A DNA stretch of 64,000 nucleotides, from assembly GCA_024707075.1 (NCBI GenBank), contig JANQAK010000003.1, positions 1,364,001-1,428,000 on the forward strand, given 5' to 3'. The notes under the pieces are model-generated. The model was given only the letters and a program-made list of their open reading frames with translations. It had not been told where the DNA came from and did no database searches. The position numbers and the translations under genes were made by a program. The stretch is from Afipia sp. GTDB taxonomy: Bacteria > Pseudomonadota > Alphaproteobacteria > Rhizobiales > Xanthobacteraceae. Positions 27,504 through 45,209 of this stretch are shown one piece after another (the first letter of the stretch is position 1; the number at the start of each line of letters is the position of its first letter).

Positions 27504-27524
27504 GTGGCGTTGATCTCTCAACAC

Positions 27525-28451: not shown

Positions 28452-28501
28452 GATTGAAAACTCCAGATCAGTTTGCCGTTCCGGCGGGATTGAGATTTCT
28501 C

Positions 28502-28611: not shown

Positions 28612-28722
28612 GTGGAGAAGCATCCGACCCGTCACACATATGGTCCGCAACGGCCCCGGCTCTGCGGCGCGGCATTTCATGCCGCACCGCGTCCGGGGCA
28701 CCGAAATGCGATCGTCGCACCC

Positions 28723-29883: not shown

Positions 29884-30330
29884 TCAGGCAAACGCAGGGA
29901 CCGCTGTTCCCCGCTCCGAAAAAGCCGCCGCGCCGAGATCGGCAACGGCGCTGATGTCGCGCATGCTGATCACGCCGACCAGCGTGTGATCGTCGATCAC
30001 CGGCAGATGCCGGATGTGATGGGCGGCCATCAGGTCGCGCACATGCGCAAGACTGTCGGTGGACCGGCACGACACCAGTTGCTGCACCGAGATCAGCGCG
30101 GAAACTTTCATGTTCAGCGCGGCGGGACCATGCTCGGCGACGGCGCGCACCACATCGCGTTCCGAAAACATGCCGACCGCGACATTGCCTTCGGTGCGGC
30201 ACACATCCTTCACGACCAGCGCGCTGATGTTCTCGTTGCGCAGCAGCCGCGCGGCGGTGCCGACCGTCTCGTTCATGCGGACGGTGGCGATCCGGGTGGT
30301 CCTCCTGTTCAGGATGTCTCCGACTCTCAT
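29884..30330 (-). CDS. CBS-domain-pair protein
   Basis: 148 residues from ATG 30330 with a strong ribosome-binding site (GGAGGTTGTG). Two CBS domains: MRVGDILNRRTTRIATVRMNETVGTAARLLRNENISALVV...FSERDVVRAVAE, and KVSALISVQQLVSC...VRDLMAAHHIRHLPVIDDHTLVGVISMRDI. CBS pairs bind adenosyl nucleotides and act as energy sensors, alone or on partner proteins. A 17-bp operator matching the oxalate GntR sites lies 88 bp upstream, so it may belong to that regulon even though repeats separate it from the block. Confidence 0.85.
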   Translation of the reverse strand: MRVGDILNRRTTRIATVRMNETVGTAARLLRNENISALVVKDVCRTEGNVAVGMFSERDVVRAVAEHGPAALNMKVSALISVQQLVSCRSTDSLAHVRDLMAAHHIRHLPVIDDHTLVGVISMRDISAVADLGAAAFSERGTAVPAFA

Positions 30331-30417: not shown

Positions 30418-30434
30418 TGGTATACATAATGCCA
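30418..30434 (-). promoter_or_regulatory. GntR-type operator upstream of the CBS gene
   Basis: TGGTATACATAATGCCA, matching the sites at 34477, 38209, 38583, 42740 and 42819. Confidence 0.6.
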
Positions 30435-30649
30435 CAAGTCAATCGGAACGAATTCCTAATTTGATCGTGGCATGCCACTGCGGATTTTGACCGGCATCCC
30501 GGCTGGGGTGGCGGCCACCATGCCGTCACCATGTCGCCTTTTGCAGCGAAGTCCGCCGCCATTTGGCCTTATGCAGCGGCGGAGACTGCAAATCGCCTGC
30601 AACGTCTTGAAAGCGTGCGGGATTATCTCATTTGACGTCCGGGCACTCG

Positions 30650-30893
30650 CCCACCGTCATGGCCGGGCTCGTCCCGACCATCCACGTCTTTCATATCCCG
30701 CCTCAAGACGTGGATGCCCGGCACAAGGCCGGGCATGACGATGCAACACGCTCGTCATTCCGGGGCGCGAGCACTTGCGAGCGAACCCGGAATCCCGAAG
30801 TTGCTTTCGATGAACTCGTCGAGATTCCGGATCAGTCCGCCAACGGGGCCGCGCTTGCGCGGACCCGTTGGCGGCCCGTCCGGAATGACGTGC
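30650..30893. repeat. Last palindromic repeats of the window
   Basis: 30657-30740 contains CATGGCCGGGCTCGTCCCGACCATCCACG...CGTGGATGCCCGGCACAAGGCCGGGCATGAC. 30754-30893 contains GTCATTCCGGGGCGCGAGCAC...CGTCCGGAATGAC. No copy of any family was seen to the right of here. Between 30435 and 30650 no gene is supported. Confidence 0.75.
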
Positions 30894-30902
30894 CTGCGCA
30901 AC

Positions 30903-31787
30903 CTATCCCCGCAACACATCCACCAGCGTCTTGCCGAGGCGCGCAGGCGACGGCGAGACGCGGATGCCGGCGGATTCCATCGCCGCGATCTTCGACTCCG
31001 CGTCGCCCTTGCCGCCGGAGATGATCGCGCCGGCATGACCCATACGCCGGCCCGGAGGCGCGGTGCGTCCGGCGATGAAGCCGACCATCGGCTTCCTGCG
31101 CCCGCGCTTCGCTTCGTCCTTGATGAACTGCGCCGCGTCTTCTTCCGACGAGCCGCCGATCTCGCCGATCATCACGATGGACTTCGTTTCCGGATCGGCG
31201 AGAAACAATTCCAGCATCGCGATGAAGTCGGTGCCTTTCACCGGGTCGCCGCCGATGCCGACCGCCGTGGTCTGGCCGAGACCTTCGGCGGAGGTCTGAT
31301 ACACCGCCTCGTAAGTCAGCGTGCCGGAGCGCGACACGATTCCGACATTGCCCTTCTTGAAAATGTTGCCGGGCATGATTCCGATCTTGCATGCGCCCGC
31401 CGTCATCACGCCGGGACAGTTCGGACCGATCAAGCGCGACTTCGAGCCTTCCAGCGCGCGCTTGACCCGCACCATGTCGGTGACCGGAATGCCTTCGGTG
31501 ATGCAGACGATCAGCGGCACTTCCGCGTCGACCGCTTCGCAGATCGCATCCGCCGCGCCCGGCGGCGGAACATAGATCACGCTGGCATCCGCGCCGGTTT
31601 TCGCGCGCGCTTCCGCCACCGTATCGAACACCGGCAACCCGAGATGCTCGGTGCTGCCCTTGCCCGGCGACGTGCCGCCGACCATGCGCGTGCCGTAGAG
31701 TGCCGCCTGCTCGGAATGAAAGGTGCCGTTTTTCCCGGTAAAACCCTGGCAAATCACTTTTGTACTGCCGTCGATGAGAATGGCCAT
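30903..31787 (-). CDS. sucD: Succinate-CoA ligase (ADP-forming) alpha subunit
   Basis: 294 residues. CoA-binding and phosphohistidine subunit of the ADP/GDP-forming ligase. N-terminal [23 protein letters not shown], CoA site [38 protein letters not shown], and the catalytic His loop [16 protein letters not shown]. It overlaps sucC by one base (TGATG), so coupled translation. Because it lies beside an oxalate-uptake gene rather than in the usual mdh-sucCD-sucA run, the pair may be a second copy, possibly for another dicarboxylate; the sequence is that of SucCD rather than malate thiokinase. Confidence 0.88.
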
Positions 31788-32989
31788 CACGCGGCCTCCT
31801 TCCGTGTGGCGCGAACGATCTTCTGCGCGGCATCGTCGAGGTCGTCGGCGGCGACGACATTCAGGCCGGACTCCGCGATGATCGTCTTGCCGCGTTCGAC
31901 ATTGGTGCCTTCGAGACGGACCACTAGCGGCACGCTCAGGCCCACCTCGCGCACGGCGGCGACCACGCCTTCGGCTACGACATCGCAGCGCATGATGCCG
32001 CCGAAGATGTTGACCAGGATGCCGCGGACATTCGGATCGGAGGTGATGATCTTGAATGCCGCCGCGACCTTCTCCTTGGTGGCGCCGCCGCCGACATCGA
32101 GAAAATTCGCCGGCGTCGCGCCATAGAGCTTGATGATGTCCATGGTCGCCATCGCAAGCCCTGCGCCGTTGACCATGCAGCCGATGGTGCCTTCGAGCGC
32201 GATATAGTTGAGGTCGTATTTCGACGCCTCGATTTCCTTCTCGTCCTCTTCGGTGAGGTCGCGCAGTTTCACCAGGTCTGGATGGCGATAGAGCGCGTTG
32301 GAATCGAAATTGATCTTGGCATCGAGGCAACGCAACTCACCCTGCTTCGTCAGCACCAGCGGATTGATTTCGAGCATCGCCATGTCGGTGGCGACGAACG
32401 CGTTATAAAGCTGCACGGTCAGCTTCTCGGCCTGCCTGACGAGATCGCCGGTCAACCCGAGCACCTGTGCGACGCGCCGTCCGTGATGCGGCATCACGCC
32501 CGTCGCAGGATCGACGGAGAAGGTGACGATTTTTTCCGGCGTATCGTGCGCCACTGTCTCGATGTCCATGCCGCCTTCGGTCGAGATGACATAGGCAATG
32601 CGCGAGGTCTCGCGATCGACCAGCATCGAGAGATAGAATTCTTTTGAAATGTCGGAGCAGTCCTCAATGTAGAGGCGGTTGACCTGCTTGCCCGCAGGGC
32701 CGGTCTGCACGGTGACGAGAGTCCGGCCCAGCATCTCTTTCGCAAAGGCCGCGACTTCATCGACCGATGTCGCCAGCCGCACGCCGCCCTTCGCGTCCGC
32801 CGGCAATCCAACGAACTTGCCCTTGCCGCGGCCGCCGGCATGAATCTGCGATTTCACCACATAGACCGGACCCGGCAGCAACTTCGCCGCAGCGATGGCT
32901 TCTTCGACCGTGAAGGCCGGCGCACCCGCCGACACCGTCACGCCGAAATTTTTCAGGACCGCCTTGCCCTGATACTCGTGGATATTCAT
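31787..32989 (-). CDS. sucC: Succinate-CoA ligase (ADP-forming) beta subunit
   Basis: 400 residues. ATP-grasp subunit: [20 protein letters not shown]-binding [42 protein letters not shown] with metal ligands, [35 protein letters not shown] and [17 protein letters not shown] at the subunit interface. First gene of sucCD. No GntR-type operator is visible in its short upstream region (32990-33058), which also holds the terminator of the antiporter gene. Confidence 0.9.
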
Positions 32990-33058
32990 CGAATTCTCCC
33001 GATGCTAACGGACGTGCGGAAACACCCTGTTGTCAGGCTCTCTTGAACAAATCTCTGC

Positions 33059-33094
33059 AAAAAGGCGCGCCTATCCGCGAATGACGCGCCTTTT
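33059..33094 (-). terminator. Terminator of the antiporter gene
   Basis: AAAAGGCGCG (33061-33069) / CGCGCCTTTT (33085-33094), 28 bp after the minus-strand stop at 33122, followed on that strand by TTTTT. Confidence 0.8.
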
Positions 33095-33121
33095 GGTTTT
33101 CAGAAGGTCTGCCTCGGCCGA

Positions 33122-34414
33122 TCAGGCGGCCTGCTGCGACCTGGCCACCACGAGCTTGCGCCACGGTTTCAGCACCACGATGGCGAGCAGCGATGCGAGA
33201 ATATTCGCACCTGCCGCCACAAGAAACACCGTGTCCCAATTGCCGTGCGACTGTTGCAGGTAGTTCGCCGCCGGCACCAGCAACGCAGCGGTGCCCTTCG
33301 CCGTATAGAGCAGACCGGCGTTCGTCGTCGCGAACTTCGACCCGAACGTATCGGTGCAGGTCGATGGGAAGAGAGAGTAGATCTCGCCCCATGCGAAGAA
33401 CACCGCGCCGGACAGGATCACGAACCAGATCGGGTCCTGGCCCCACAGATACAGCAGATAGATGCCGACACCCTCGAGGCCGAACGCGATGAACATCGTG
33501 TTCTCGCGGCCGATCTTGTCGGACACCCAGCCGAAGAACGGCCGCGTCAGGCCGTTGAGGATGCGATCGAAGGTCGCGGCGAAAGTCACCGCGGTCATCG
33601 TCATCGCCATCAGCGTTACTGGCGTGTTGTCGATCTTCCAGTCTGCCGCGATCGGCTTCAGATTGGCGGTGATCATCAATCCGCCCGCGCCGACGATGAC
33701 GAACATGAAGTACATCAGCCAGAAAATCGGATGGCGGATGACTTCGGTCGGCAGATAGTTGCGGCGGGTCTGCTGAAGGTTCGCGTTCACCACCGGCGGC
33801 GGCACCTGCCCGGTCTTCGGCGCGAACAGCAGGAACGACAGAATGACAATGATGATGCCCTGCCCCAGACCGAAATAGAGGAAGGTGTTCTGGAAGCCGT
33901 CGTTCTTGATCATCGCCTGGATCGGCGCGACCGTCAGCGCGGAGCCTGCACCGAAACCCGCGGCGGTGATGCCCGCCGCGAGACCGCGCTTGTCGGGAAA
34001 CCACTTCAGCGCGTTGCCGACGCAGGTGCCGTAAACACCGCCGGCACCGATGCCCGCGATGATCATGCCGAGATAGTAGCCGTTGAGTGTCGTCGCCTGC
34101 GCGTTGATGGCCCAGCCGATGGCGCAAAGAATGCCGCCGACAAGGACGACGATGCGTGGACCGTACTTGTCGACGAACCAGCCTTCGATCGGGACCAGCC
34201 ACGTTTCGAACAGCACGAACAGCGTGAAGGCCCACTGGATCGACGCGCGATCCCATCCGAATTTTTTCTGAATGTCGGGGACGAAGAACGTCCAGCCGTA
34301 TTGATAGTTGGCGATCATGACCATGGCGCCCACGCCGATGGCCAACTGAACCCAGCGATAGGTATCGCTAACGCGCGCGGCCGCAGGGGCCGCCGTATGA
34401 ACTGCATCAGTCAT
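33122..34414 (-). CDS. oxlT: MFS antiporter of the oxalate/formate (OFA) family
   Basis: 430 residues, 12 predicted transmembrane helices. N terminus YRWVQLAIGVGAMVMIANYQYGWTFFVPDIQKKFGWDRASIQWAFTLFVLFETW is characteristic of the OFA group. GWFVDKYGPRIVVLVGG is the MFS loop 2-3 motif, and a central loop separates the halves. Exchanges oxalate for formate, or takes up a related monoacid, across the inner membrane. The GntR-type operator lies 62 bp upstream and a terminator downstream, so it is a single-gene unit of the oxalate regulon. The symbol is by family; transport specificity is inferred from oxc and frc nearby. Confidence 0.85.
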   Translation of the reverse strand: MTDAVHTAAPAAARVSDTYRWVQLAIGVGAMVMIANYQYGWTFFVPDIQKKFGWDRASIQWAFTLFVLFETWLVPIEGWFVDKYGPRIVVLVGGILCAIGWAINAQATTLNGYYLGMIIAGIGAGGVYGTCVGNALKWFPDKRGLAAGITAAGFGAGSALTVAPIQAMIKNDGFQNTFLYFGLGQGIIIVILSFLLFAPKTGQVPPPVVNANLQQTRRNYLPTEVIRHPIFWLMYFMFVIVGAGGLMITANLKPIAADWKIDNTPVTLMAMTMTAVTFAATFDRILNGLTRPFFGWVSDKIGRENTMFIAFGLEGVGIYLLYLWGQDPIWFVILSGAVFFAWGEIYSLFPSTCTDTFGSKFATTNAGLLYTAKGTAALLVPAANYLQQSHGNWDTVFLVAAGANILASLLAIVVLKPWRKLVVARSQQAA

Positions 34415-34476
34415 CGTTCCTCCCGAGGCGCCCTGTTCTGTTGAGTTTGGCGACAGGCGCTACCAGAACGACAGTC

Positions 34477-34493
34477 TGGTATACGATATGCCA
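34477..34493 (-). promoter_or_regulatory. GntR-type operator of the antiporter gene
   Basis: TGGTATACGATATGCCA, 62 bp before the ATG at 34414. The surrounding 100 bp closely resembles 38146-38250. Confidence 0.65.
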
Positions 34494-34568
34494 TCCTGCA
34501 AGAGGTATTGCGGGATGGCGTCCGGTTTTTTCACGATGCGGAAAACGGGCTGCCGCCAAGCGGGCGAC

Positions 34569-34597
34569 AAAAAAAGCTCCGGCTGTAAGCCGGAGCC
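34569..34597 (-). terminator. Terminator of tctCBA
   Basis: GCTCCGGCT-GTAA-GCCGGAGC with seven T residues after the stem on the minus strand, 128 bp beyond the tctA stop. Confidence 0.8.
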
Positions 34598-34724
34598 AAT
34601 CCTATGTTAATGCTCGACAAAAGCGAGAGCAGCCGACGCCAGGCTCCAATGCTTTGAACACGCGACTTGAGCGAATGGGCTTAACGCGAGTCCGGCAAGT
34701 GGATTCAGGCTTGCGTCTCCGCCC

Positions 34725-36236
34725 CTACAGCGCCGTCTTCGGTGTGCGCGAGAACAGCCACGTCCATCCGTTCGAGATCACCGGCCAGAACAGCGCGACC
34801 AGGCCGAGTGTCATGATCGATCCCACCAGACCGTTGGAGAAGAACACGCCGAGGCTGCCTTGCGATCCGAGCAGCGATTGCCGGAATGCTTCCTCCGCCT
34901 TGTCGCCAAGCACGATAGCAAGCACCAGCGGCGCCATGGGATAGTTGCACTTCTTCATGACGTAGCCGACCACACCGAACACCATCATCATCACCACGTC
35001 GAAGGTGTTGTTGTGCACGGTGTAGGCGCCGATCGCGCATAGCACGAGGATGACGGGCGCGATGATGCTGAACGGAATCCGCAGGATGGCCGCGAACAGC
35101 GGCACGCAGGTCAGCACCACGATTAATCCAACAAGGTTGCCGAGATACATGCTGGCGATCAGGCCCCACACGAACTCCTTCTGCTCGACGAACAGCAGCG
35201 GCCCGGGCTGCAATCCCCAGATCAGCAAGCCGCCGAGCAGCACCGCAGCCGTCGGAGACCCCGGAACGCCGAGCGACAGCATCGGCAGCAATGCGGCGGT
35301 GCCGGCCGCATGAGCCGCGGTCTCCGGCGCGACCACGCCCTCGATCTCGCCCTTGCCGAAGTTCTTGCCGTGCTTCGACATGCGCTTGGCGATCCCGTAG
35401 CTCATGAACGACGCAGGCGTCGCGCCAGCCGGGGAAACGCCCATCCAGACGCCGATCAGGCACGACCGCAACGATGTCGCCCAGTAGCGCGGGAGTTCCT
35501 TCCACGTCTCCAATACAACCCTCGCATTGATCTTGGCAGGCTTGCCCCTGAAATTCAGCCCCTCCTCCATGGTGAGAAGGATCTCGCCGATTCCGAACAG
35601 CCCGATGACAGCAATCAGGAAGTCGAAACCGTTGAGCATTTCGGTGAATCCGAATGTCAGGCGAAGCTGTCCCGTGATGCTGTCGAGGCCGACCGACGCC
35701 AGCGCGAAGCCGATCATCATCGCGACGATGGTCTTGAACGGCGGCTCCTTGCCCATGCCGATGAAACTGCAAAACGCGATGAAGAACACCGCGAATTTTT
35801 CCGCCGGACCGAACTGAAGCGCAAACCTCGCGACCAATGGCGCCACCAGCGTGATCATGATCACGGCGAACAATGCGCCCACAAACGACGACGTGAACGC
35901 GGCGGTCAGCGCCTCGCCGGCCTTGCCCTTCTGCGCCATCGGGTGACCGTCGAATGTCGTGGCGACGGACCAAGGTTCGCCGGGAATATTGAACAGGACC
36001 GACGTGATCGCGCCGCCGAACAGCGCGCCCCAGTAGATGCACGACAGCATGATGATGGCTGAGGTCGGCGGCATGCTGAAGGTCAGCGGCAGCAGGATCG
36101 CCACGCCGTTGGCACCGCCAAGACCGGGAAGCACCCCGATGATGACGCCGAGAACGATGCCGACAATCATCACCAGGATATTGAACGGCTGCAACACCGT
36201 GGCGAAGCCGTGAAACAGATTTGCAATTTCTTCCAT
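34725..36236 (-). CDS. tctA: Tripartite tricarboxylate transporter, large membrane subunit TctA
   Basis: 503 residues from ATG 36236 (MEEIANLFHGF). About 12 transmembrane segments. Family words: IVGIVLGVIIGVLPGLGGANGVAILLPLTF, CIYWGALFGGAITSVLFNIPGEPWSVATTFDGHPMAQKGKAGEAL and GVSPAGATPASFMSYGIAKRMSK. The large subunit of the TTT system, forming the translocation path with TctB. The frame is open for 94 codons upstream, but that part overlaps tctB and is not TctA-like. Last gene of tctC-tctB-tctA. Confidence 0.9.
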   Translation of the reverse strand: MEEIANLFHGFATVLQPFNILVMIVGIVLGVIIGVLPGLGGANGVAILLPLTFSMPPTSAIIMLSCIYWGALFGGAITSVLFNIPGEPWSVATTFDGHPMAQKGKAGEALTAAFTSSFVGALFAVIMITLVAPLVARFALQFGPAEKFAVFFIAFCSFIGMGKEPPFKTIVAMMIGFALASVGLDSITGQLRLTFGFTEMLNGFDFLIAVIGLFGIGEILLTMEEGLNFRGKPAKINARVVLETWKELPRYWATSLRSCLIGVWMGVSPAGATPASFMSYGIAKRMSKHGKNFGKGEIEGVVAPETAAHAAGTAALLPMLSLGVPGSPTAAVLLGGLLIWGLQPGPLLFVEQKEFVWGLIASMYLGNLVGLIVVLTCVPLFAAILRIPFSIIAPVILVLCAIGAYTVHNNTFDVVMMMVFGVVGYVMKKCNYPMAPLVLAIVLGDKAEEAFRQSLLGSQGSLGVFFSNGLVGSIMTLGLVALFWPVISNGWTWLFSRTPKTAL

Positions 36237-36265
36237 ATCGATGTTCCCAACCGCGGCTTGAAATT

Positions 36266-36769
36266 CTAAAGACCGAGCAGGTCTTCCAATGGTCCTTCTG
36301 GCAGCGGAATGAGGAACCATTTCTCGAAGAACAGGTAGATCGCAACGGGTGTCCCGAGAGCGACCGCGGCCGTGGTGCTCCACGGATATTTGCCGAGCCA
36401 TCTCATGAAGAGAGCGATGAGGATGGTCGATGCGACGTAGATGCCAAGATACGGAATGATCAAGGCATAGATCGTGGTCGGGATGAGAACGCAGAGAACC
36501 TGGCGAAGTTGTCCCCACTCCGAGAACAGCCGGCCGTCATCGGGCTCCATCAAAAGCTGAGTGCAATTCACGGCGCTCGCGAGAACGATGATGACGCCGA
36601 TATAAAACGGAAAGAATCCGGATTTCGGACCTTCTGGTCCCCAGCCGATTCCGACCTTGAGACTGCCGACAATCGTGATCACGCCCAGCAGAATGCAGAA
36701 TATGCCGACGCCCAGCTCCGTCCATCGATGCGAGGGACCGCGTTCGTCAATTCCAGAATGCCCGCTCAT
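36266..36769 (-). CDS. tctB: Tripartite tricarboxylate transporter, small membrane subunit TctB
   Basis: 167 residues. Four hydrophobic helices: WTELGVGIFCILLGVITIVGSL, GFFPFYIGVIIVLASAVNC, VLCVLIPTTIYALIIPYLGIYVASTILIALFM and TTAAVALGTPVAIYLFFEKWFLIPLP. The P-G-P/K-SGFFPFYIG segment and FLIPLP ending are TctB hallmarks. Lies between the binding-protein gene (62-bp gap) and tctA (29-bp gap). Confidence 0.88.
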   Translation of the reverse strand: MSGHSGIDERGPSHRWTELGVGIFCILLGVITIVGSLKVGIGWGPEGPKSGFFPFYIGVIIVLASAVNCTQLLMEPDDGRLFSEWGQLRQVLCVLIPTTIYALIIPYLGIYVASTILIALFMRWLGKYPWSTTAAVALGTPVAIYLFFEKWFLIPLPEGPLEDLLGL

Positions 36770-36831
36770 GTTTTTTCCCGTGCTGAAGTCCTGCCGGCGG
36801 AAAAATCCGCCGGCAGTGTTTGTCGTTGAAA

Positions 36832-37851
36832 CTATTGTGTTGCAGCGAGGAAGCCGGCGTCCTTCATCAGCGCCTGATGGCGCTTTTCTTCATTCTCGAC
36901 CCACGCCGAATATTCGGAACCGACCATCAGGGTCTGATTGAAGGCGCCGTCCTTCATCAGCGTCTGCCATTCCGGCGTTTCACGTACTTTCTTGAGCACG
37001 TTGACGTAGTAATCGACCTGATCCTTGGTCGCTTTTGGCGACGTGAAGAATCCGCGCAGCATCACATATTCGACGTCGAGTCCCTGCGACTTGCAGGTCG
37101 GAATGTCGCCCCAGGCTTTTCCATCGGCCATCGCGTCCTTGTAGGGCAGCGGCTTGGCGTCGAATACGCAGAGCGGGCGAACGGCTCCGCCGCGCCACTG
37201 CGCGACAGCTTCGATCGGATTGTTGACGGTGGAATCGATGTGCTTGCCCACAAGCTGGACCGCCACTTCACCGCCGCCGCGGTATGGAATGTAGGTGAAC
37301 TTGGTGCCGGAGGCTTTCTCGATCGCGACCGTGATGATCTGGTCTTCCTGCTTCGAGCCGGTGCCGCCCATCTTGAATTCACCGGGCTTTGCTTTCACGG
37401 CGTCGATATAATCCTTCACGGACTTGTAGGGGCTGTCCGCGTTCACCCACAGGACGAATTCGTCGAGCGCCATCATCGCGACCGGCGTCAGATCCCTGTG
37501 GCTGAAAGGAATGCCGGTTCCGAGCGGGGTTGTGAAAAGATTCGAGAGAGTGATGACCAGCTTGTGCGGGTTTCCCGCCGAACTCTTGACGTCGAGGAAA
37601 CCTTCACCGCCCGCGCCGCCGGCCTTGTTCACCACCACCAGCGGCTGCTTCATCAGATTATGCTTGGTGACGATGCCCTGAATCGTGCGCGCCATCTGGT
37701 CCGCGCCGCCGCCGGTGCCCGCAGGCACGACGATCTCCACCGGCCGGGTTGGCTCCCACGCCGCCAAAGCGGGAACGGAAGCGAAAGCTGCCCCCAGCGA
37801 AACGCCAAAACCCAGTGCAAGACCTAATGTTCGATTAGACGATAACATCAT
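36832..37851 (-). CDS. tctC: Tripartite tricarboxylate transporter, periplasmic receptor (Bug family)
   Basis: 339 residues from ATG 37851, preceded by GGGAGAAAA; a further ATG at 37887 is possible. The signal peptide ends near VPALA. Bug-family signatures: WEPTRPVEIVVPAGTGGGADQMARTI, VVNKAGGAGGEGFLDV, KMGGTGSKQEDQI, YIPYRGGGEVAVQLVGKHIDSTVNNPIEA. Captures a carboxylate ligand (two water-mediated carboxylate contacts are typical) for TctAB. Its leader region lies behind an antiporter-like promoter with a GntR operator (38209-38225), suggesting oxalate-linked control. Confidence 0.88.
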   Translation of the reverse strand: MMLSSNRTLGLALGFGVSLGAAFASVPALAAWEPTRPVEIVVPAGTGGGADQMARTIQGIVTKHNLMKQPLVVVNKAGGAGGEGFLDVKSSAGNPHKLVITLSNLFTTPLGTGIPFSHRDLTPVAMMALDEFVLWVNADSPYKSVKDYIDAVKAKPGEFKMGGTGSKQEDQIITVAIEKASGTKFTYIPYRGGGEVAVQLVGKHIDSTVNNPIEAVAQWRGGAVRPLCVFDAKPLPYKDAMADGKAWGDIPTCKSQGLDVEYVMLRGFFTSPKATKDQVDYYVNVLKKVRETPEWQTLMKDGAFNQTLMVGSEYSAWVENEEKRHQALMKDAGFLAATQ

Positions 37852-38030
37852 CGCGTTTTCTCCCACCCGTTGTTTCATGCCGCTCATTGGCGGCTTAACT
37901 CCGAAGTCTGCCTTGCGGGCAGTTTATGGATTTCGGTCTCTCGTGACGCCGGCTCGCCTGCCTCCAGGAATGTTCAAGACAAAGATTCAAACGTGCTTCA
38001 GATGTGCACGACTGACCGCAACGGATTCTG

Positions 38031-38146
38031 AATCCGCGCAGACGATCAGCCGCAATCATTTTCGGGAAGTTTGCGCCAACAGCGATCGCGCCGTCCGTCA
38101 ATCCACGGTGCGGCCGCCTCGACACCGCAAGAACGGTATCAGCCAT
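38031..38146 (-). pseudogene. Remnant of a second OFA antiporter gene start
   Basis: The sequence upstream of and across the ATG at 38146 mirrors that of the antiporter at 34414: shared words include ATCAG-C-CAT, CTCCC-AGGCGC-CTGTTCT-TT and ATATGCCA. The reading frame begins MADTV and contains AIAVGA...MIAAD, which resembles AIGVGA..MIANY of the intact antiporter. Similarity then fades and the frame ends at 37895. Probably the 5' fragment of a decayed duplicate. Confidence 0.5.
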
Positions 38147-38208
38147 AGTCCCCTCCCAAGGCGCGCTGTTCTATTAAGAGATCGACAGTCGCTACCTGAT
38201 GCGCATCG

Positions 38209-38225
38209 TTGTATGCGATATGCCA
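38209..38225 (-). promoter_or_regulatory. GntR-type operator (duplicate antiporter promoter)
   Basis: TTGTATGCGATATGCCA, two differences from the 34477 site, 63 bp before the remnant ATG at 38146 and about 360 bp before tctC. Confidence 0.55.
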
Positions 38226-38289
38226 GGACACAAGAGTTATTCTGGATGTCGCTCTCTGGCACTGCGGCATCGAATTGCAACGACGCAAC

Positions 38290-38314
38290 AAAAAAGCCCC
38301 GGAAAACCGGGGCC
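38290..38314 (-). terminator. Terminator of the 45-residue ORF
   Basis: GCCCCGG-AAAA-CCGGGGC with six T residues following on the minus strand, 63 bp after the stop at 38377. Confidence 0.8.
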
Positions 38315-38376
38315 TTTCACGACATTTTAAAAGGATGGCAGCCGCGGTTATTCGCTAACTGCCAGTTGCTTCATCC

Positions 38377-38514
38377 TCAGAGCCCGAAACGCGGCAAATC
38401 GCCGTTCTGCACGGAGATCCGCGCGCTCTTCATCAAAATAATATCAATGAAAGCAACGATTTGGCGAAACAGTCCATTGGAAGAAGCAAAACCTACGGAA
38501 GCAGTCTTGGACAT
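38377..38514 (-). CDS. Small ORF (45 residues) in the oxalate regulon
   Basis: ATG 38514 to TGA 38377. The product begins MSKTASVGFASSNGLFRQ, has a hydrophobic IVAFIDIILM centre and ends DLPRFGL. Upstream are AAAGGCCCTCC (a modest ribosome-binding region), and a GntR-type operator 69 bp from the ATG. A strong terminator follows. This complete regulatory frame, and its place beside frc, argue for a real gene. I do not recognise the family; a membrane-associated or regulatory peptide is possible. Confidence 0.55.
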   Translation of the reverse strand: MSKTASVGFASSNGLFRQIVAFIDIILMKSARISVQNGDLPRFGL

Positions 38515-38582
38515 TGGAGGGCCTTTCGAAACCGAGAATTCAGCGATGACATAGCATGATAGCGCTCTGATGCTCGCAACCT

Positions 38583-38599
38583 ATGTATACCAGATGCCA
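38583..38599 (-). promoter_or_regulatory. GntR-type operator of the 45-residue ORF
   Basis: ATGTATACCAGATGCCA. The right 13 bases match 42740-42756 except one. Confidence 0.55.
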
Positions 38600-38717
38600 A
38601 CATCAACACATTATTTCGCATGGCAGCAACTGCCCTATTGCATCGCAATATACTGACAGCAGCGCGGCAAAATGCCCCAGCCTCAAAAGAACAGCCGGAA
38701 GGTTGCGATCTCAACGG

Positions 38718-38743
38718 AAAAGGCCGGCGAGTGCGCCGGCCTT
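38718..38743 (-). terminator. Terminator of the gntR-oxc-frc unit
   Basis: AAGGCCGGCG-AGT-GCGCCGGCCTT, 25 bp after the frc stop, with TTTT following on the minus strand. Confidence 0.8.
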
Positions 38744-38767
38744 CGTAGTCTCATCGGCCCGGAGGGG

Positions 38768-40048
38768 TTATTCCGCTGCTTCGACTTTTCGCGGCGGCGA
38801 CACAGCGCCCGAATGATGAACCTCGGCGATCTGGTTGTCGTTGAAGCCGAGAACGTCTTTCAGAATCTCATCGGTGTGTTCGCCGAGCAACGGCGAGCGT
38901 GTCACCACTGTAGGGCTGTCCGACAGCTTGATCGGATTGCCGACCGACAGATACTTGCCGCGCGCGGGGTGATCGACTTCGACGATGGTGCCAGTGGCGC
39001 GCAGTGACTGATCTTCCGCCAGTTCCTTCATCGACAGGATCGGTCCGCACGGAATGTCATCCTTGTTGAGGATGTCCATCGCTTCGAACTTGGTCTTGGT
39101 CATCGTCCACTGTTCGATGCGGGCGAAGATCTCGTTGAGACGCGCCAGACGTGCTGGCGGCTTGGCGTAGTCCGGATGTGTCTTCCAGCCGGGCTCGCCG
39201 ATCACATCGCAAATCTTCTCCCAGACCGGAGCCTGTGTGATGAAATAGATGTAGGCATTGGGGTCGGTCTCCCAACCCTTGCACTTGAGGATGCGGCCCG
39301 GCTGGCCGCCGCCGGAATCGTTGCCGGCGCGCGGCACGGCATCGCCAAACGGAATGCCTTCACCGAACTGGCTGTATTCCTTGAGCGGACCGTGGGCGAG
39401 GCGCTGCTGATCGCGCAGCTTGACGCGTGCGAGATTGAGCACGCCGTCCTGCATCGCCGCCGTGACCTTCTGGCCCTTTCCGGTGACGGTGCGCTGATAG
39501 AGCGCGGTGACGATGCCAAGCGCGAGATGCAACCCGGTGCCGCTGTCGCCGATCTGTGCGCCCGTCACCAGCGGAAGGCCGTCGCGGAAACCTGTCGTCG
39601 AAGCCGCACCGCCGGTGCATTGCGCGACGTTCTCGTAGACCTTGCAGTCCTCATAAGGACCGGGGCCGAAGCCCTTGATGGACGCCACGATCAGCTTCGG
39701 ATTGATCTTCTGGATGGTCTCCCAGGGAAAGCCCATGCGATCCAGTACGCCGGGGCCGAAATTCTCCACCAGCACGTCGCACGTCTTCATCAGGGCGGTC
39801 AGAACTTCCTTGCCCTTCGGGTTCTTGGTGTCGAGCGTGATCGATCGCTTGTTGTGATTCAGCATCGTGAAATAGAGGCTGTCCGCATTCGGGACATCCA
39901 TGAGCTGGCCGCGGGTGATGTCACCGACGCCGGGACGCTCCACCTTGATCACATCCGCACCGAACCATGCCAGCAACTGCGTGCAAGTCGGCCCCGACTG
40001 AACATGGGTGAAATCAAGAATGCGAACGCCCTTCAGCGCCTGTGTCAT
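38768..40048 (-). CDS. frc: Formyl-CoA:oxalate CoA-transferase
   Basis: 426 residues, close to the 416-428 of known FRC enzymes. A class III CoA-transferase that moves CoA from formyl-CoA to oxalate, giving oxalyl-CoA for Oxc. N-terminal [68 protein letters not shown], and [16 protein letters not shown], whose Asp corresponds to the catalytic aspartate. The ribosome-binding site GGAGTATGATAAG fits ATG 40048. Downstream of oxc by 130 bp, so probably co-transcribed with gntR and oxc. Confidence 0.93.
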
Positions 40049-40178
40049 CTTATCATACTCCGTATCGGTCGACGCCTTCTGACGCCGAGTGCGAGGACTA
40101 AAATCGGTTGGGACCGAACTGTCCCGACCGCGTCATTGTTTGAGTTTGTTTCCGTCATCCGGTTCTGGTGCCGGACGC

Positions 40179-41921
40179 TTATTTCTTCTTCAAAGCGCTT
40201 TGTGGATTGAGATTTCCGATGCGGCCGCTTTCGCTGCCCGCAGCCGGATCGATCACCGCATTGATAAGCGTCGGCTTGCCGGAATCCATAGCCGCGTTGA
40301 CTGCGCGTTTCAGCTCATCGGGGGTCGTTGCATTGACGCCAACACCGCCAAAAGCCTCCATCATCTTGTCGTAACGCGCGCCCTTGACGAAAACAGTCGG
40401 CGCAACGTCGGGGCCGCCTGTGGGATTGACGTCGGTGCCGCGATAAATGCCGTCATTGTTGAAGATCACAACGCAGACCGGCAGCTTGTAGCGACAGATC
40501 GTTTCCACTTCCATGCCGGAAAAACCGAATGCGCTGTCGCCTTCAATTGCAAGCACCGGCTTGCCGGTCTCAATCGCCGCAGCAATGGAATAGCCCATGC
40601 CGATGCCCATGATACCCCAGGTGCCGACGTCGATACGCTTGCGCGGCTGATACATGTCGATGATGCCGCGCGCGAGGTCGAGGGTGTTGGCGCCTTCATT
40701 GACAAGGATCGCGTCTGGACGTTCCTTGATGATGGTGCGCAGAACGCCGAGCGCGCCGTGATAGTCCATCGGCGAATTGTTGTTCATCAGGCGCGGCGCC
40801 ATCTTGGCGACGTTGTCGTCGCGCTTGGCTTGAACGGATTTGGTCCAGTCCACCGGCGGGGCCGGCCAGTTGGCCCCCATGCCTTGCAGAAGCGCCGAAA
40901 CGGAAGATCCGATGTCGCCGACCACGGGCGCCATGATCTCGACGTTCGAATCCATTTCCTTCGGCTCGATGTCGAGCTGAATGAACTTCTTCGGCGCTTC
41001 GCCCCAGGTCTTGCCCTTGCCATGCGACAGCAGCCAGTTCAGCCGCGCCCCGATCAGCATGACGACGTCGGAATCCTTCAGCACGGTTGAGCGTGCCGCG
41101 CCGGCGCACTGCGGATGCGTGTCCGGCAGCAGGCCCTTGCCCATACTCATCGGCAGGAATGGAACGCCGCTCTTTTCAACCAGCGCGCGGATCGCGTCGT
41201 CGGCCTGTGCGTAGGCAGCGCCCTTGCCGAGGATGATCAGCGGCTTCTTCGCCCCTTTGAGTACGTCGAGCGCCCGCTTCACCGATTCCGGAGCCGGGAT
41301 TTGCGCAGGCGCCGCGTCAATCACCTTCACCAGCGATTTTTGACCCGCATCAGCATTCATCACCTGTCCGAACAGCTTGGCCGGAAGATCGAGATAGACA
41401 CCGCCCGGACGGCCCGAAACGGCGGCGCGGATCGCACGCGCAACGCCGATACCGATGTCCTGCGCATGCAGCACGCGGAATGCGGCCTTGCAGAGCGGTT
41501 TGGCGATGGCGAGTTGGTCCATTTCCTCGTAGTCGCCCTGCTGCAAGTCGACGATCTCGCGCTCCGACGAGCCGGAGATCAGGATCATCGGAAAGCAATT
41601 GGTGGTGGCATGAGCGAGCGCGGTCAGGCCGTTGAGAAAGCCCGGCGCAGAGACCGTGAGACAGACACCCGGCTTCTTGGTCAGGAAGCCCGCGATCGAC
41701 GCGGCATAGCCGGCATTTTGTTCATGACGAAACGAAAGAACGCGGATGCCCTCGGCTTGTGCCATGCGGCCGAAGTCCGTGATCGGAATACCCGGCACGC
41801 CATAGATGGTATTGAGACCATTGAGCTTGAGCGCATCGATAATCAGATGAAAGCCGTCCGTCAGCTCCTGCTCTGCTTCATTTGCAGCCGTCGTCTCTGG
41901 CTTGTTCGCTGTCGTCAGCAT
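40179..41921 (-). CDS. oxc: Oxalyl-CoA decarboxylase
   Basis: 580 residues. ThDP-dependent tetramer converting oxalyl-CoA to formyl-CoA and CO2. ThDP-activating Glu67 in [13 protein letters not shown], central FAD-fold domain with an ADP-binding role, and the C-terminal ThDP/Mg motif [37 protein letters not shown] (GDS...NN). A C-terminal Lys-rich tail ends the chain, like the mobile lid of characterised OXC. It starts 36 bp after gntR and is followed by frc, forming the core oxalate-degradation operon. Confidence 0.95.
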
Positions 41922-41956
41922 CGGTGGCTCCCTAGTGTCTTTTTTTGATCATTCGT

Positions 41957-42682
41957 CTACGTGAAAATTTCCTGGCCGTGGGTTTCGACGTAGGTCGCAA
42001 GTCCCAGCGTATGATCGCGCGCACGCTTCTCGGCAAGTTCGGTATCGCGTTCTTCGAGCGCCTCGATGATCGCGAGATGTTCGGGCAACGACACAGCGGT
42101 GCGGTCGGTCCGGCCGATCGTCAGTTGCCGGTAGCCACGCACATGCAGCAGGATGTCGTTGGTCATGTCGACCAGAACCGGGGATCTGCTCAGCGAGATC
42201 AGCGCCTGATGGAAGGCGATGTTCGCTTTCGAATACTCTTCAATATGATCCTGCGGCAGCCGATCTTTATTGAAGTCCTTGAAGAAGTTGCGCAGCGCTG
42301 AAATGTCTTTCTTGCGCGCTGTCGTGGTGATGAGGCGCGCGGCCATGCTTTCGAGCGCGGCCCAGGCGCGGATCATGTCGACGATCTCGGTCTTGGTCTT
42401 GCGCACCACGACGATGCCGCGGCGTGGCACCGTTTTGACGAAACCGTCCTGCTCCAGCATCGCGATCGCTTCACGGATCGGCGTGCGACTGACTCCCAGA
42501 TGCTCGGACAGCGCGCGCTCGTCGAGCATGACCGGCTCCGGCGACGTGTAAATATCCATTTTCAGGATCGCTTCTTTCAGAGCGTCATACGCCTTGTTCT
42601 TGAAGCTCGCCTCCGGCGCGATGCGCACGATGGCAATGTCCTGATCGGTTAATGGTGCCTTCGAAATTTTCTGGGTCGCCAT
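41957..42682 (-). CDS. GntR family (FCD-type) regulator of oxalate genes
   Basis: 241 residues. The winged helix-turn-helix (about 47-110) reads DERALSEHLGVSRTPIREAIAMLEQDGFVKTVPRRGIVVV, and the FCD ligand domain follows (RAWAALESMAARLIT..., HQALISLSRSPVLVDMTNDIL, EHLAIIEALEERDTELAEKRARDH). First gene of the oxc-frc unit. Two copies of the 17-bp operator lie in the 358-bp gap to the divergent ligase gene, the nearer 58 bp from its ATG, so autoregulation is likely. The effector is probably oxalate, oxalyl-CoA or formate (inference). Confidence 0.88.
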   Translation of the reverse strand: MATQKISKAPLTDQDIAIVRIAPEASFKNKAYDALKEAILKMDIYTSPEPVMLDERALSEHLGVSRTPIREAIAMLEQDGFVKTVPRRGIVVVRKTKTEIVDMIRAWAALESMAARLITTTARKKDISALRNFFKDFNKDRLPQDHIEEYSKANIAFHQALISLSRSPVLVDMTNDILLHVRGYRQLTIGRTDRTAVSLPEHLAIIEALEERDTELAEKRARDHTLGLATYVETHGQEIFT

Positions 42683-42739
42683 GAATCATCTCCCCTCTCT
42701 GCTGAGGGCTGTATACCACGGGGTTGCTATCAATGTTCT

Positions 42740-42756
42740 TGGCATACCAGATGCCA
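42740..42756. promoter_or_regulatory. GntR-type operator, gntR side
   Basis: TGGCATACCAGATGCCA, the most symmetric copy (TGGCAT...ATGCCA). Confidence 0.7.
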
Positions 42757-42818
42757 ATATGTCAAGCTGACCGCCTATCAGGTGCGAGCCCAATGAACAT
42801 ACTTGACAAGTTTGTTCT

Positions 42819-42835
42819 TGGCATACCAAATACCA
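42819..42835. promoter_or_regulatory. GntR-type operator, ligase side
   Basis: TGGCATACCAAATACCA, preceded by GTTCT as is the 42740 site. A partial half-site, TGTATACCA, occurs near 42711. The remainder of the 42836-43040 leader has no gene. Confidence 0.65.
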
Positions 42836-43040: not shown

Positions 43041-45209
43041 ATGGCTCATTCACAGGACGCAGCCCGCAAGGTTGATTTCGGACAGCAGGCGAAGGCCGAA
43101 GTCCGGAAAATTCTGGATGCGGTGAAAGCGGACAAGCGCAACAGCCTCACAGCGCCGGAAGGCAAGCTGGTCTGCGATGCCTACGGAATTCCGGTTCCGA
43201 AGGAAGGCGTGGCCAAGTCTGCGGCCGATGCAGCGAAACTCGCGACCGGCATGGGATTCCCTGTCGTGATGAAGATCGTCTCCCCCGACATTCTCCACAA
43301 GACCGAAGCCGGCGGCGTAATTGTCGGCGTCAAAACCGCGGCCGAAGCGGAGAAGGCTTACGACACCATTCTGGCGAACGCGAAGAAATACAAAGCCGAT
43401 GCCAAGATCGAGGGCATCCAGGTGCAGCAGATGCTGCTGGGCGGCACGGAAGTCATCGTCGGCTCGATTACCGACGGCTCGTTTGGAAAGCTCGTGGCGT
43501 TCGGTCTCGGCGGCGTTCTCGTCGAAGTGCTGAAGGATGTCACATTCCGCCTTGCACCTGCGACCAATGCCGATGCGCTGTCGATGCTCGACGGCATCCA
43601 GGCTCACGAAATGCTCAATGGCGTTCGCGGGGGCGATCCTGTCAACCGCGAAGCCCTTGCGGAGATCATCGTCAACGTCTCGCAGCTTGTCAGCGACTTC
43701 CCGGAAATCGTCGAACTCGATCTCAATCCGGTGTTCGCGACCAAGAAAGATGCGATTGCCGCCGACGTGCGGATCGTCGTCGACTTCGACTACAAGCCGC
43801 GCCCCGCGCCGCGCTCGAACGAAGAAATCGTCACCGCGATGAACCGCATCATGATGCCGAAGGCCGTCGCCGTGATCGGCGCCTCGGCTGAAGCCGGCAA
43901 GATCGGCAACTCGGTGATGAAGAACCTCATCAACGGCGGTTACAAGGGCCAGATCTACCCGATCCATCCCAAGGCGGATGAGATCATGGGCATCAAGGCC
44001 TACAAGAGCGTCAAGGATGTGCCGGGCGTTATCGACACCGCCGTATTCGCAATCCCTGCGAAGCTCGTCGCCGCCGCGCTCATCGAATGCGGCGAGAAGA
44101 AAATTCCCGGCGCCGTTCTGATCCCGTCGGGCTTCGCCGAAGCCAACGAGCCTGCGTTGCAGGAAGAAATCGTCGAGATCGGCAAGAAGTACAATGTGCG
44201 TCTGATGGGCCCGAACATCTACGGCTTCTATTATACGCCAGCCAATCTCTGCGCGACCTTCTGCACGGCCTATGACGTCAAGGGGTCGGCGGCGCTGTCG
44301 TCACAATCCGGCGGCATCGGCATGGCGATCATCGGTTTCTCGCGCTCCGCCAAGATGGGTGTGTCGGCGATTGTCGGTCTCGGCAACAAGTCAGACATCG
44401 ATGAGGACGATCTGCTCGCTTTCTTCGAGCAGGACCCAAACACCACGATCATCGCGCAGCATTGCGAAGATCTGAAGGACGGCCGTGCCTTCGCGGAAGC
44501 CGCCAAGCGCGTCTCCAAGAAGAAGCCGGTGGTTGTTCTGAAGGCGGGCCGGACGTCGGCAGGCGCCAAGGCGGCCTCGTCGCACACCGGCGCGCTCGCT
44601 GGCAACGACAAGATCTATGAGGACGTGCTCAAGCAGTCCGGCGTGATCCGCGCCCGCTCACTGCGACAGCTTCTCGAGTTCGCGCGCGGCATTCCCGTGC
44701 TGCCAACGCCGAAGGGCGAGAACGTGCTCATCATCACCGGCGCAGGCGGATCGGGCGTGCTTCTGTCGGACGCCGTTGTCGATAACGGGCTGTCGCTGAT
44801 GGCGATGCCGCCGGACCTCGATGCAGCGTTCCGCAAATTCATTCCGCCGTTTGGCGCGGCCGGAAATCCGGTGGACATCACTGGCGGCGAACCACCGATC
44901 ACCTACGTCAACACGGTGAAGCTCGGCCTCACCGACGATCGGATTCATTCGCTGATCCTCGGCTACTGGCACACCATCGTCACGCCGCCGATGGTGTTCG
45001 CCAAAAACATGGTCGAAGTGAAGAACGAGATGAAGGCCAAGGGCATAGACAAGCCGATGGTCGCCTCACTGGCCGGCGACGTCGAAGTCGAGGAAGCCGC
45101 CGAATATCTCTACCAGAACGGCATCCCGGCCTACGCCTACTCCACCGAGCTTCCAGTCGAAGTGCTCGGTGCAAAATACAAGTGGGCGCGCGGCGCAGGC
45201 CTTCTGTAA
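43041..45209 (+). CDS. ADP-forming acyl-CoA ligase (acetate-CoA ligase family), ATP-grasp first
   Basis: 722 residues. A fused NDP-forming acyl-CoA synthetase. The ATP-grasp (beta) domain is N-terminal (about 30-245: APEGKLVCDAYGIPVPKEG, VVMKIVSPDILHKTEAGGVIVGV, VELDLNPVFATKKD). The CoA-binding and ligase (alpha) domains follow (MPKAVAVIGASAEAGKIGNSVMKNLINGGYKGQIYPIHPKADEI; SSQSGGIGMAI; phospho-His in ASSHTGALAGND; GAGGSGVLLSDA). The ribosome-binding site AGGAGGAAG precedes ATG 43041. Divergent from gntR-oxc-frc with shared operators, so a CoA-thioester role for oxalate, formate or a related acid is likely; substrate unproven. Confidence 0.88.
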   Translation: MAHSQDAARKVDFGQQAKAEVRKILDAVKADKRNSLTAPEGKLVCDAYGIPVPKEGVAKSAADAAKLATGMGFPVVMKIVSPDILHKTEAGGVIVGVKTAAEAEKAYDTILANAKKYKADAKIEGIQVQQMLLGGTEVIVGSITDGSFGKLVAFGLGGVLVEVLKDVTFRLAPATNADALSMLDGIQAHEMLNGVRGGDPVNREALAEIIVNVSQLVSDFPEIVELDLNPVFATKKDAIAADVRIVVDFDYKPRPAPRSNEEIVTAMNRIMMPKAVAVIGASAEAGKIGNSVMKNLINGGYKGQIYPIHPKADEIMGIKAYKSVKDVPGVIDTAVFAIPAKLVAAALIECGEKKIPGAVLIPSGFAEANEPALQEEIVEIGKKYNVRLMGPNIYGFYYTPANLCATFCTAYDVKGSAALSSQSGGIGMAIIGFSRSAKMGVSAIVGLGNKSDIDEDDLLAFFEQDPNTTIIAQHCEDLKDGRAFAEAAKRVSKKKPVVVLKAGRTSAGAKAASSHTGALAGNDKIYEDVLKQSGVIRARSLRQLLEFARGIPVLPTPKGENVLIITGAGGSGVLLSDAVVDNGLSLMAMPPDLDAAFRKFIPPFGAAGNPVDITGGEPPITYVNTVKLGLTDDRIHSLILGYWHTIVTPPMVFAKNMVEVKNEMKAKGIDKPMVASLAGDVEVEEAAEYLYQNGIPAYAYSTELPVEVLGAKYKWARGAGLL

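What the first reader, a model, noticed from the sequence alone, without database searches (positions are those of the whole stretch)
30418..42835. A six-site 17-bp GntR-type operator links the oxalate genes, a transporter, a 45-residue ORF and a CBS protein
Near-identical 17-mers occur at 30418, 34477, 38209, 38583, 42740 and 42819 (consensus about TGGNATACNNNATNCCA). Five lie 58-88 bp upstream of a start codon: the CBS gene, the antiporter, its decayed duplicate, the 45-residue ORF and gntR. The sixth faces the ligase gene. The imperfect palindrome suits a dimeric FCD-type GntR, and the only such regulator here is encoded next to two copies. This outlines a compact oxalate regulon with unexpected members.
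Basis: partly seen in the sequence, partly recalled or inferred. Interest (0 to 1): 0.7.

Follow-up and report, generated by a model that had tools for sequence, protein, structure and literature searches.

The report
Oxalate regulon with new 45-residue protein

Summary
The six 17-mers are real, and all 4 exact matches to the printed consensus in this 5.3-Mb Afipia-like genome lie here. In 80 named relatives, operators precede gntR (80 of 80), the acdA side (80 of 80), the 45-residue ORF (40 of 40), tctC (38 of 40), ofa (34 of 37), a second ofa-like gene (15 of 15), cbs (28 of 28) and sucC (10 of 10); other genes have none: frc 0 of 78, tctA 0 of 39, tctB 0 of 32. At ofa, cbs, tctC and the small ORF the operator usually fills the spacer between -35 and -10 boxes, which predicts a repressor; gntR and acdA do not show that full pattern.

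The "decayed duplicate" site is better read as the tctCBA operator. The 45-residue ORF is a real gene: purifying selection, no Pfam or NCBIfam match, single copy in 141 of 391 family genomes. An OFA or Tct gene follows it in 96 of 96 loci; it is present in 38 of 39 clusters with an OFA gene and 0 of 10 without. I propose a small partner of the oxalate transporter. Binding, ligand and function are untested.

The parts
42740..42756 (.). operator before gntR (proximal)
   Evidence: exact match to pattern; 80 of 80 relatives; exact TTGACA 3 bp upstream in 76 of 76 distinct sequences
42819..42835 (.). operator on the acdA side of the divergent gntR-acdA region (distal site)
   Evidence: exact match; 80 of 80 relatives; spacing to the proximal site 81 bp in 61 of 80, range 71-82; 79 bp in the window
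38583..38599 (.). operator before the 45-residue gene
   Evidence: 2 mismatches; 40 of 40 named relatives that have the gene; kept where the gene lies far from gntR
   Evidence: 2 mismatches; 38 of 40 relatives with tctC have a site 223-345 bp before it
34477..34493 (.). operator before the oxalate/formate antiporter gene ofa
   Evidence: exact match; 34 of 37 relatives
30418..30434 (.). operator before the CBS-domain gene
   Evidence: exact match; 28 of 28 relatives
41957..42682 (-). gntR, FCD-type GntR regulator, 241 aa
   Evidence: Pfam GntR 2.3e-12 and FCD 8.2e-23
40179..41921 (-). oxc, oxalyl-CoA decarboxylase
   Evidence: TIGR03254 1028.8 bits, cut-off 739.4
38768..40048 (-). frc, formyl-CoA transferase
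   Evidence: TIGR03253 733.4 bits, cut-off 504.2
38377..38514 (-). 45-residue protein gene, no known family
   Evidence: 97 loci (window included) with a 45-codon copy, mean pN/pS 0.46 in frame against 0.94 and 1.76 in the other frames
38290..38318 (-). terminator-like palindrome with T run after the 45-residue gene
   Evidence: read by eye from the sequence, also in L030 and L034; the scan tool did not flag it
36832..37887 (-). tctC, tripartite transporter receptor (longest ORF; the start may be internal)
   Evidence: Pfam TctC 1.6e-32
36266..36769 (-). tctB
   Evidence: Pfam TctB 1e-20
34725..36518 (-). tctA (longest ORF; the true start is probably internal)
   Evidence: Pfam TctA 1.4e-151 over residues 114-533
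33122..34414 (-). ofa, oxalate/formate MFS antiporter
   Evidence: TIGR04259 657.6 bits, cut-off 335
29884..30330 (-). CBS-domain protein, 148 aa
   Evidence: Pfam CBS 2.5e-21, two stretches
43041..45209 (+). acdA, ADP-forming acyl-CoA ligase family, substrate unassigned
   Evidence: Pfam Ligase_CoA_2, ATP-grasp_5 and others; no NCBIfam cut-off reached

Best explanation
The six 17-mers are operators of the FCD-type GntR protein encoded at 41957-42682, which represses a local oxalate regulon: gntR-oxc-frc, acdA, the 45-residue gene, tctCBA, ofa and cbs. Shown by sequence: the sites, their conservation, and at five promoter classes their overlap with -35/-10 boxes. Inferred: that this GntR binds them, that it represses by blocking RNA polymerase, and that oxalate or a CoA-linked product releases it, so the regulator's own operon rises with its targets. 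The 45-residue product is a real protein, predicted to be one helix with a conserved tail (NGDLPxFGL type), whose presence follows the OFA antiporter. I infer that it is a small partner or modulator of oxalate uptake. The confidence below is for the regulon, the repressor reading and the coding nature of the small gene; its role at the transporter is rated apart, in the section on the most novel reading.
For: Sites. Conservation against other cluster genes: (gntR 80 of 80; distal 80 of 80; 45-residue gene 40 of 40; tctC 38 of 40; ofa 34 of 37; second ofa-like 15 of 15; cbs 28 of 28; sucC 10 of 10; frc 0 of 78, tctA 0 of 39, tctB 0 of 32, panE 0 of 8, fah 0 of 2); the matrix was made from these relatives, but the window-only matrix gave the same classes. 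Repressor geometry: TTGnnn-N17-nAnnnT with the operator in the spacer at one register in ofa 35 of 36, second ofa 13 of 13, cbs 24 of 28, tctC 26 of 38, and one base shifted at the small-gene position 31 of 48. Small gene. Next tested gene downstream ofa or tctC in 96 of 96. Co-occurrence with ofa: (38 of 39 against 0 of 10). Operator kept where the small gene is about 864 kb from gntR (L142). One helix, residues 6-36.
Against: No binding, expression or ligand data. 12 FCD regulators exist in the genome, so assignment to this one rests on position and conservation. The combined promoter pattern is not found at the gntR proximal site (20 of 76 forward, none at a leading register, against 58 of 76 on the reverse strand) nor toward acdA (16 of 77 against 35); the reverse-strand control is also sizeable, though at other registers, for tctC (24 of 38) and cbs (18 of 28). 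In 8 loci the distal site lies at or beyond the extrapolated acdA start, so that start or its role there is uncertain. Three ofa genes (L056, L057, L087) and two tctC genes (L062, L074) lack a site. L057 has ofa without the small gene; 7 of 141 genomes have the small gene without a close ofa, and 7 of 35 gntR-ortholog genomes without it have ofa. Only 4 well-supported independent pairs bear on the ofa link (sign test p 0.125). The window has no site before sucC. The helix model is moderate (mean pLDDT 71.4, pTM 0.38).
Confidence: 0.8

Rival explanations
1. The sites belong to the oxalate genes but the GntR acts as an activator that needs oxalate or a CoA ester.
For: Autoregulation and induction would look similar. 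Some FadR-subfamily proteins activate (recalled). The -10 boxes are weak matches (CAnnnT), as at activated promoters.
Against: At ofa, second ofa, cbs, tctC and the small gene the operator mostly occupies the -35/-10 spacer at a fixed register, and at acdA and sucC it overlaps the -10 or start region if the boxes I read there are right.
Confidence: 0.13
2. The 45-residue ORF is a small regulatory RNA or leader, and its translation is incidental.
For: It is a short unit with its own operator and a terminator-like palindrome.
Against: Frame-specific purifying selection (pN/pS 0.46 against 0.94 and 1.76), a 45-codon length in nearly all copies, and invariant M1, D24, L27, N37 and P41 in 38 aligned members. 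No Rfam match.
Confidence: 0.06
3. The 45-residue protein serves the whole oxalate pathway, or CBS or Tct, and its link with ofa is shared ancestry.
For: It is under the same operator as all of them; the ofa association rests on about 4-5 independent changes; in G043 and G095 the best close ofa is not next to it.
Against: It stays beside an ofa-type gene or tctC in 96 of 96 loci but beside frc in only 60; it is absent in 10 of 10 clusters that keep tctCBA but lack ofa; tct presence does not predict it.
Confidence: 0.35
4. The site at 38209 is a dead relic of a duplicated ofa promoter with no present role.
For: In the window the sequence after it resembles the ofa leader and first codons and then diverges.
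Against: A site is kept before tctC in 38 of 40 relatives, with -35 and -10 boxes in the usual register in 26 of 38.
Confidence: 0.15

Closest known systems
FadR subfamily (FCD) of GntR regulators, e.g. NanR, PhnR, GlcC, LldR
   Same: GntR winged helix plus FCD domain; operator before its own gene
   Different: Below the NCBIfam cut-offs of the named members matched (best PhnR 94.3 of 271.5 bits). Operator is inverted TGG(C/T)AT with a 5-bp centre rather than TKGT-N3-ACMA; NanR is reported to use direct repeats TGGTATAW (PMC4494728, passages).
Oxalate degradation by Frc-Oxc in Bradyrhizobium (Bll3156, Bll3157)
   Same: The same enzymes; B. diazoefficiens is said to metabolize oxalate, and Frc and Oxc are reported in nodules and as more abundant on arabinose (PMC4926349 and PMC5996035, passages)
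   Different: The passages I saw name no regulator, operator or small protein. The main paper (Koch et al. 2014, AEM) is not held and was not read.
Oxalate/formate antiporter family (TIGR04259)
   Same: The window's ofa is well above the equivalog cut-off
   Different: Here it travels with a 45-residue gene under the same operator
Small bacterial proteins that modulate transporters (e.g. AcrZ, SgrT, KdpF; recalled)
   Same: Short, single predicted helix, co-regulated with a transporter
   Different: No sequence relation tested; this one looks amphipathic rather than clearly transmembrane (window maximum 19-residue hydropathy 1.31; 38 members 0.63-1.72)

Membership tests
FadR subfamily of GntR regulators | GntR-type winged helix at the N terminus | tested here: met
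   PF00392 46.8 bits, cut-off 27
FadR subfamily of GntR regulators | FCD effector domain at the C terminus | tested here: met
   PF07729 81.6 bits, cut-off 24.3, residues 102-224
FadR subfamily of GntR regulators | common operator TKGT-N3-ACMA (PMC4494728, passages, which name exceptions) | tested here: not met
   64 distinct relatives' sites give TGG(C/T)AT-N5-AT(A/G)CCA; not a required feature, since exceptions are known
FadR subfamily of GntR regulators | binding of the operator by the purified protein, released by an acid ligand | not testable with these tools
   bench test needed
Named NCBIfam GntR equivalogs (PhnR, NanR, CsiR, LldR, GlcC and others) | score above the curated cut-off | tested here: not met
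   18 families matched, none over its cut-off
Frc-Oxc oxalate pathway | both enzymes over equivalog cut-offs | tested here: met
   TIGR03253 and TIGR03254
Oxalate/formate antiporter (OFA) | score over the TIGR04259 cut-off | tested here: met
   657.6 against 335 bits; transport not testable here
Any Pfam or NCBIfam family (45-residue protein) | a match at E up to 1 | tested here: not met
   0 families for 3 members in both libraries
Known RNA family (region of the 45-residue gene) | match at the gathering score | tested here: not met
   0 matches in 37800-38900

The most novel reading that the evidence does not exclude
The 45-residue protein is a dedicated small partner of the OFA oxalate/formate antiporter, made only when the GntR repressor is released, which docks by its amphipathic helix to tune or stabilise the carrier. 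OFA antiporters would then have an accessory microprotein that I found described nowhere in the libraries and papers searched.
Probability: 0.4. Interest if true: 0.75.

Novelty: new variant of a known kind. Interest (0 to 1): 0.58.

Why it matters
The gntR-oxc-frc cluster is widespread in Bradyrhizobium and its relatives, which include nodule symbionts, and among the papers that my nine searches listed I saw no account of its regulator. This gives a concrete regulator, operator and gene list that one EMSA and one deletion can test. It also adds a single-copy 45-residue protein family, without a match in Pfam or NCBIfam, whose gain and loss follow the oxalate transporter: a directly testable lead to an accessory factor for a carrier family that matters for oxalate handling.

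Tried and rejected
Rejected or set aside. (1) Chance: searches exclude it for the four exact sites, and conservation covers the other two. The list was cut, so most of its one-mismatch places were not scored. (3) A known RNA at the small gene: none. (4) Plasmid copies of the small gene: no match. (5) Small-gene homologues elsewhere in the order: 19 of 397 genomes matched, 17 of the family and 2 outside it, weakly and inside long frames, taken as chance; G256 likewise (partial, E 0.0047), so I count 141, not 142. (6) Solved structures of the small protein: none at E up to 5. (7) The sigma-70 and terminator scan did not flag the operator-linked promoter or the palindrome by the small gene; both are my own readings. 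(8) A test of Tct as the partner of the small gene: no association. (9) In one search the sucD query was cut out of frame; its rows, including the sucD control (0 of 4), are not used.

Limits of counts. Searches used the 80 best of 179 matching loci, all close to the window's GntR; they are kin, not independent. The matrix was built from sites of the same loci; the window-only matrix gave the same classes. The printout was cut in the middle. In one search, 79 loci had a measurable acdA-gntR gap: 50 showed two pattern matches, 21 three (overlapping ones) and 8 one. In one search, 78 loci had frc: 49 could be judged for ofa, and 29 could not (27 without and 2 with the small gene). The 'small-gene position' class (48 sites) includes loci that have lost the gene. 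Searches found copies by a pattern in the conserved tail, so divergent copies may be missed. One search found no such frame in L146, L151 and L166, although one search had scored the first two and the third; L150 has 46 codons. In one search a few matches covered only residues 3-45, 1-44 or 1-42. Genomes are the same drawn 391.

Literature. Nine paper searches; several lists were cut (15 of 153, 15 of 225, 12 of 62). Among the papers listed I saw none on the GntR regulator of oxc-frc or on this small protein; the one paper (PMC7176365) was seen as a listing only. I searched for terms and saw passages of PMC4494728, PMC4926349, PMC8305402 and PMC5996035; in PMC5082802 and PMC5343134 the terms did not occur, and in PMC4842269 only in the reference list. 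Koch et al. 2014 was not held, so a description of the regulator there cannot be excluded.
Full report
Check of the observation. Four fit the printed consensus exactly and two have 2 mismatches. None of 100 shuffles of the window gave as many matches. In the whole 5.3-Mb genome the printed pattern occurs exactly only at these four places. The palindromic version TGGNATNNNNNATNCCA has 7 exact places, 4 of them here; with up to one mismatch it has 92 places against 11 for the reversed-pattern control. I did not follow that excess. The gaps to start codons are 57-87 bp.

Genes. gntR encodes a GntR-FCD protein. oxc, frc and ofa pass equivalog cut-offs. tctCBA, a CBS-domain protein and an ADP-forming acyl-CoA ligase (acdA, substrate unassigned) complete the set. 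It is the only FCD regulator in the window, and one of 12 in the genome.

Relatives. A search of genome contigs with GntR returned 80 named loci, the best of 179, from Afipia, Tardiphaga, Bradyrhizobium, a Rhodopseudomonas and related MAGs. Their gene order is acdA back to back with gntR-oxc-frc, then tctCBA and/or ofa, a second ofa-like gene, sucCD, cbs, panE and fah in various subsets. With a matrix rebuilt from 64 distinct relatives' sites, a site scoring at least 15 stands before gntR in 80 of 80 loci, at the distal position in 80 of 80, before the 45-residue gene in 40 of 40, tctC in 38 of 40, ofa in 34 of 37, the second ofa-like gene in 15 of 15, cbs in 28 of 28 and sucC in 10 of 10. Other genes of the cluster have none: frc 0 of 78, tctB 0 of 32, tctA 0 of 39, panE 0 of 8, fah 0 of 2. 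That matrix comes from the same loci; the matrix made from the window's six sites alone had already found the same classes. The loci are close kin, so these are not independent counts, but conservation of a 17-bp element in otherwise variable spacers, next to controls, is strong evidence for function.

Two sites between gntR and acdA. Their spacing is 81 bp in 61 of 80 loci and 79-82 in all but one, where it is 71, one helical turn shorter. The proximal site has an exact TTGACA 3 bp upstream toward gntR in 76 of 76 distinct sequences. The distal site has a TTGACA-like box 10 or 11 bp upstream toward acdA in 77 of 77, 56 of the 62 at 10 bp being exact. Its distance from acdA varies widely, and in 8 of 79 loci it lies at or beyond the extrapolated acdA start, so that start is uncertain.

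Promoter geometry. At ofa, the second ofa, cbs and tctC a TTGnnn box begins 8 bp before the operator and an nAnnnT box follows a 17-bp spacer, in 35 of 36, 13 of 13, 24 of 28 and 26 of 38 distinct sequences. At the small-gene position the frame is shifted by one (31 of 48, some from loci that have lost the gene). On the reverse strand the same search finds some such pair in 6 of 36, 5 of 13, 18 of 28, 24 of 38 and 8 of 48, at other registers. At the gntR proximal site the pair pattern fails (20 of 76 forward, scattered; 58 of 76 reverse), as it does toward acdA (16 of 77 against 35 of 77); there only the -35 box is clear. In the window cbs, ofa, tctC and the small gene follow the common registers. 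At sucC in relatives the operator starts just after a -10-like CAATCT (my reading). An operator that fills the spacer or covers the start site predicts a repressor. This is inference from position; no binding was measured.

Operator type. The half-site is TGG(C/T)AT, inverted, with 5 bp between. A survey of the family gives TKGT/ACMA boxes with GT and AC 3 nt apart for most FadR-subfamily members, and direct repeats TGGTATAW for NanR (PMC4494728, passages). The present arrangement shares the NanR half-site but not its direction.

The site at 38209. In the window it is followed by a leader and first codons that resemble those of ofa and then diverge. In relatives with tctCBA a site lies 223-345 bp before tctC in 38 of 40; in relatives without tctCBA, such as L042, the site after the small gene lies about 50 bp before ofa. 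The simplest history is that tctCBA came to lie behind an ofa-type promoter. I read 38209 as the tctCBA operator.

The window has no site before sucC: the best score between 32901 and 33256 is 4.2. Its ofa-sucC spacer is shorter than in the six relatives printed there.

The 45-residue gene. The ORF at 38377-38514 recurs in 40 of the 80 named loci. With the unnamed loci and the window, 97 carry a 45-codon copy (89 distinct DNA sequences); mean pN/pS is 0.46 in its frame against 0.94 and 1.76 in the others, and median dN/dS is 0.335. M1, D24, L27, N37 and P41 are invariant in 38 aligned members. No Pfam or NCBIfam family matches 3 members at E up to 1, and no solved structure matches the profile at E up to 5. 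AlphaFold gives one helix, residues 6-36, with pLDDT about 90 in residues 21-30 and 71.4 overall. The window's genome has one good copy (a second match, E 0.34, covers half the profile). 141 of 391 family genomes have it, one match each (142 listed, one dropped as chance), in 7 of 47 genera after that drop (8 listed). In 397 genomes of the order, 17 family genomes matched and 2 outside gave weak partial matches that I take as chance.

It is a regulon member even when moved. In the 30 best loci, an operator scoring 15.6 or more starts 70-76 bp before the start codon in 29; L138 has a weaker one, 12.7. Of the further loci L142-L170, 26 of 29 were readable and all 26 have one, starting 69-102 bp before the start codon. 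In G273 (L142) the gene lies about 864 kb from gntR and keeps the operator TGGCATCTGGTATACAT.

It follows the transporter. Downstream, the next of the 14 tested genes, on the same strand and within 1.5 kb, is ofa or ofa-like in 43 and tctC in 53 of 96 loci; frc is upstream in only 60. Among 49 named clusters that could be judged, 38 of 39 with an ofa gene have it and 0 of 10 without. In those 10, tctCBA, which in other tct loci lies between the two, is kept, so one deletion would not explain the joint absence. In L031 and L032 a decayed remnant is seen in alignment. In the 391 genomes, 134 of 141 with the gene have a close ofa; of 35 with a gntR ortholog but no such gene, 7 have it (not corrected for kinship). 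On an oxc tree of 50 rows, ofa changes at least 5 times and the small gene 6; the four well-supported independent pairs go the same way in 3.8 on average and never the other way, p 0.125, the least that four pairs can give. tct shows no such link.

Mechanism. Most likely GntR sits in the promoters when oxalate is absent; oxalate or a derivative enters the FCD pocket, the protein leaves, and uptake (ofa, tctCBA, the small protein), activation and breakdown (frc, oxc), the ligase and the CBS protein are made together with more repressor. The small protein's helix suggests a surface or membrane partner, and the antiporter is the best candidate. Shown: sites, conservation, coding nature, co-occurrence. 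Not shown: binding, ligand, direction of control, protein function.

Known work. B. diazoefficiens is said to metabolize oxalate, and its Frc (Bll3156) and Oxc (Bll3157) are reported in nodules and as more abundant on arabinose (PMC4926349, PMC5996035, passages). Among the papers listed by nine searches of the held library, some lists cut, I saw none on the regulator of these genes or on such a small protein. Koch et al. 2014 was not held.

Noticed in passing
window 32990-33121: The ofa-sucC spacer lacks the operator that all 10 relatives with a sucC match carry; sucCD here may have left the regulon or be read from upstream.
   Followed up: partly
window 26143-26263, 27524-27658, 28501-28612, 30652-30743: Paired, inverted GC-rich repeats of about 36 nt (CGTCGTCCCGGCGCAGGCCGGGACCCAT type at the first three; a related-looking pair at the last), like REP or BIME elements.
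   Followed up: no
whole genome, pattern TGGNATNNNNNATNCCA: 92 places with up to one mismatch against 11 for the reversed-pattern control; the excess may come from codon and dinucleotide make-up or other regulators' sites.
   Followed up: no
L008, 1501 (G000:C5:194763): TGGAATACGATATAACA scores 18.1, near the weakest operator in the window, 18.4; a possible distant target.
   Followed up: no
L031 and L032, about 14120-14290: Afipia loci without ofa in the cluster keep the operator but show only a decayed remnant of the 45-residue gene.
   Followed up: partly
L045 13913, L048 13903, and L123 and L125 upstream of the small gene: A second, weaker operator-like site 79-81 bp before the small gene's operator, about the same spacing as at gntR.
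   Followed up: no
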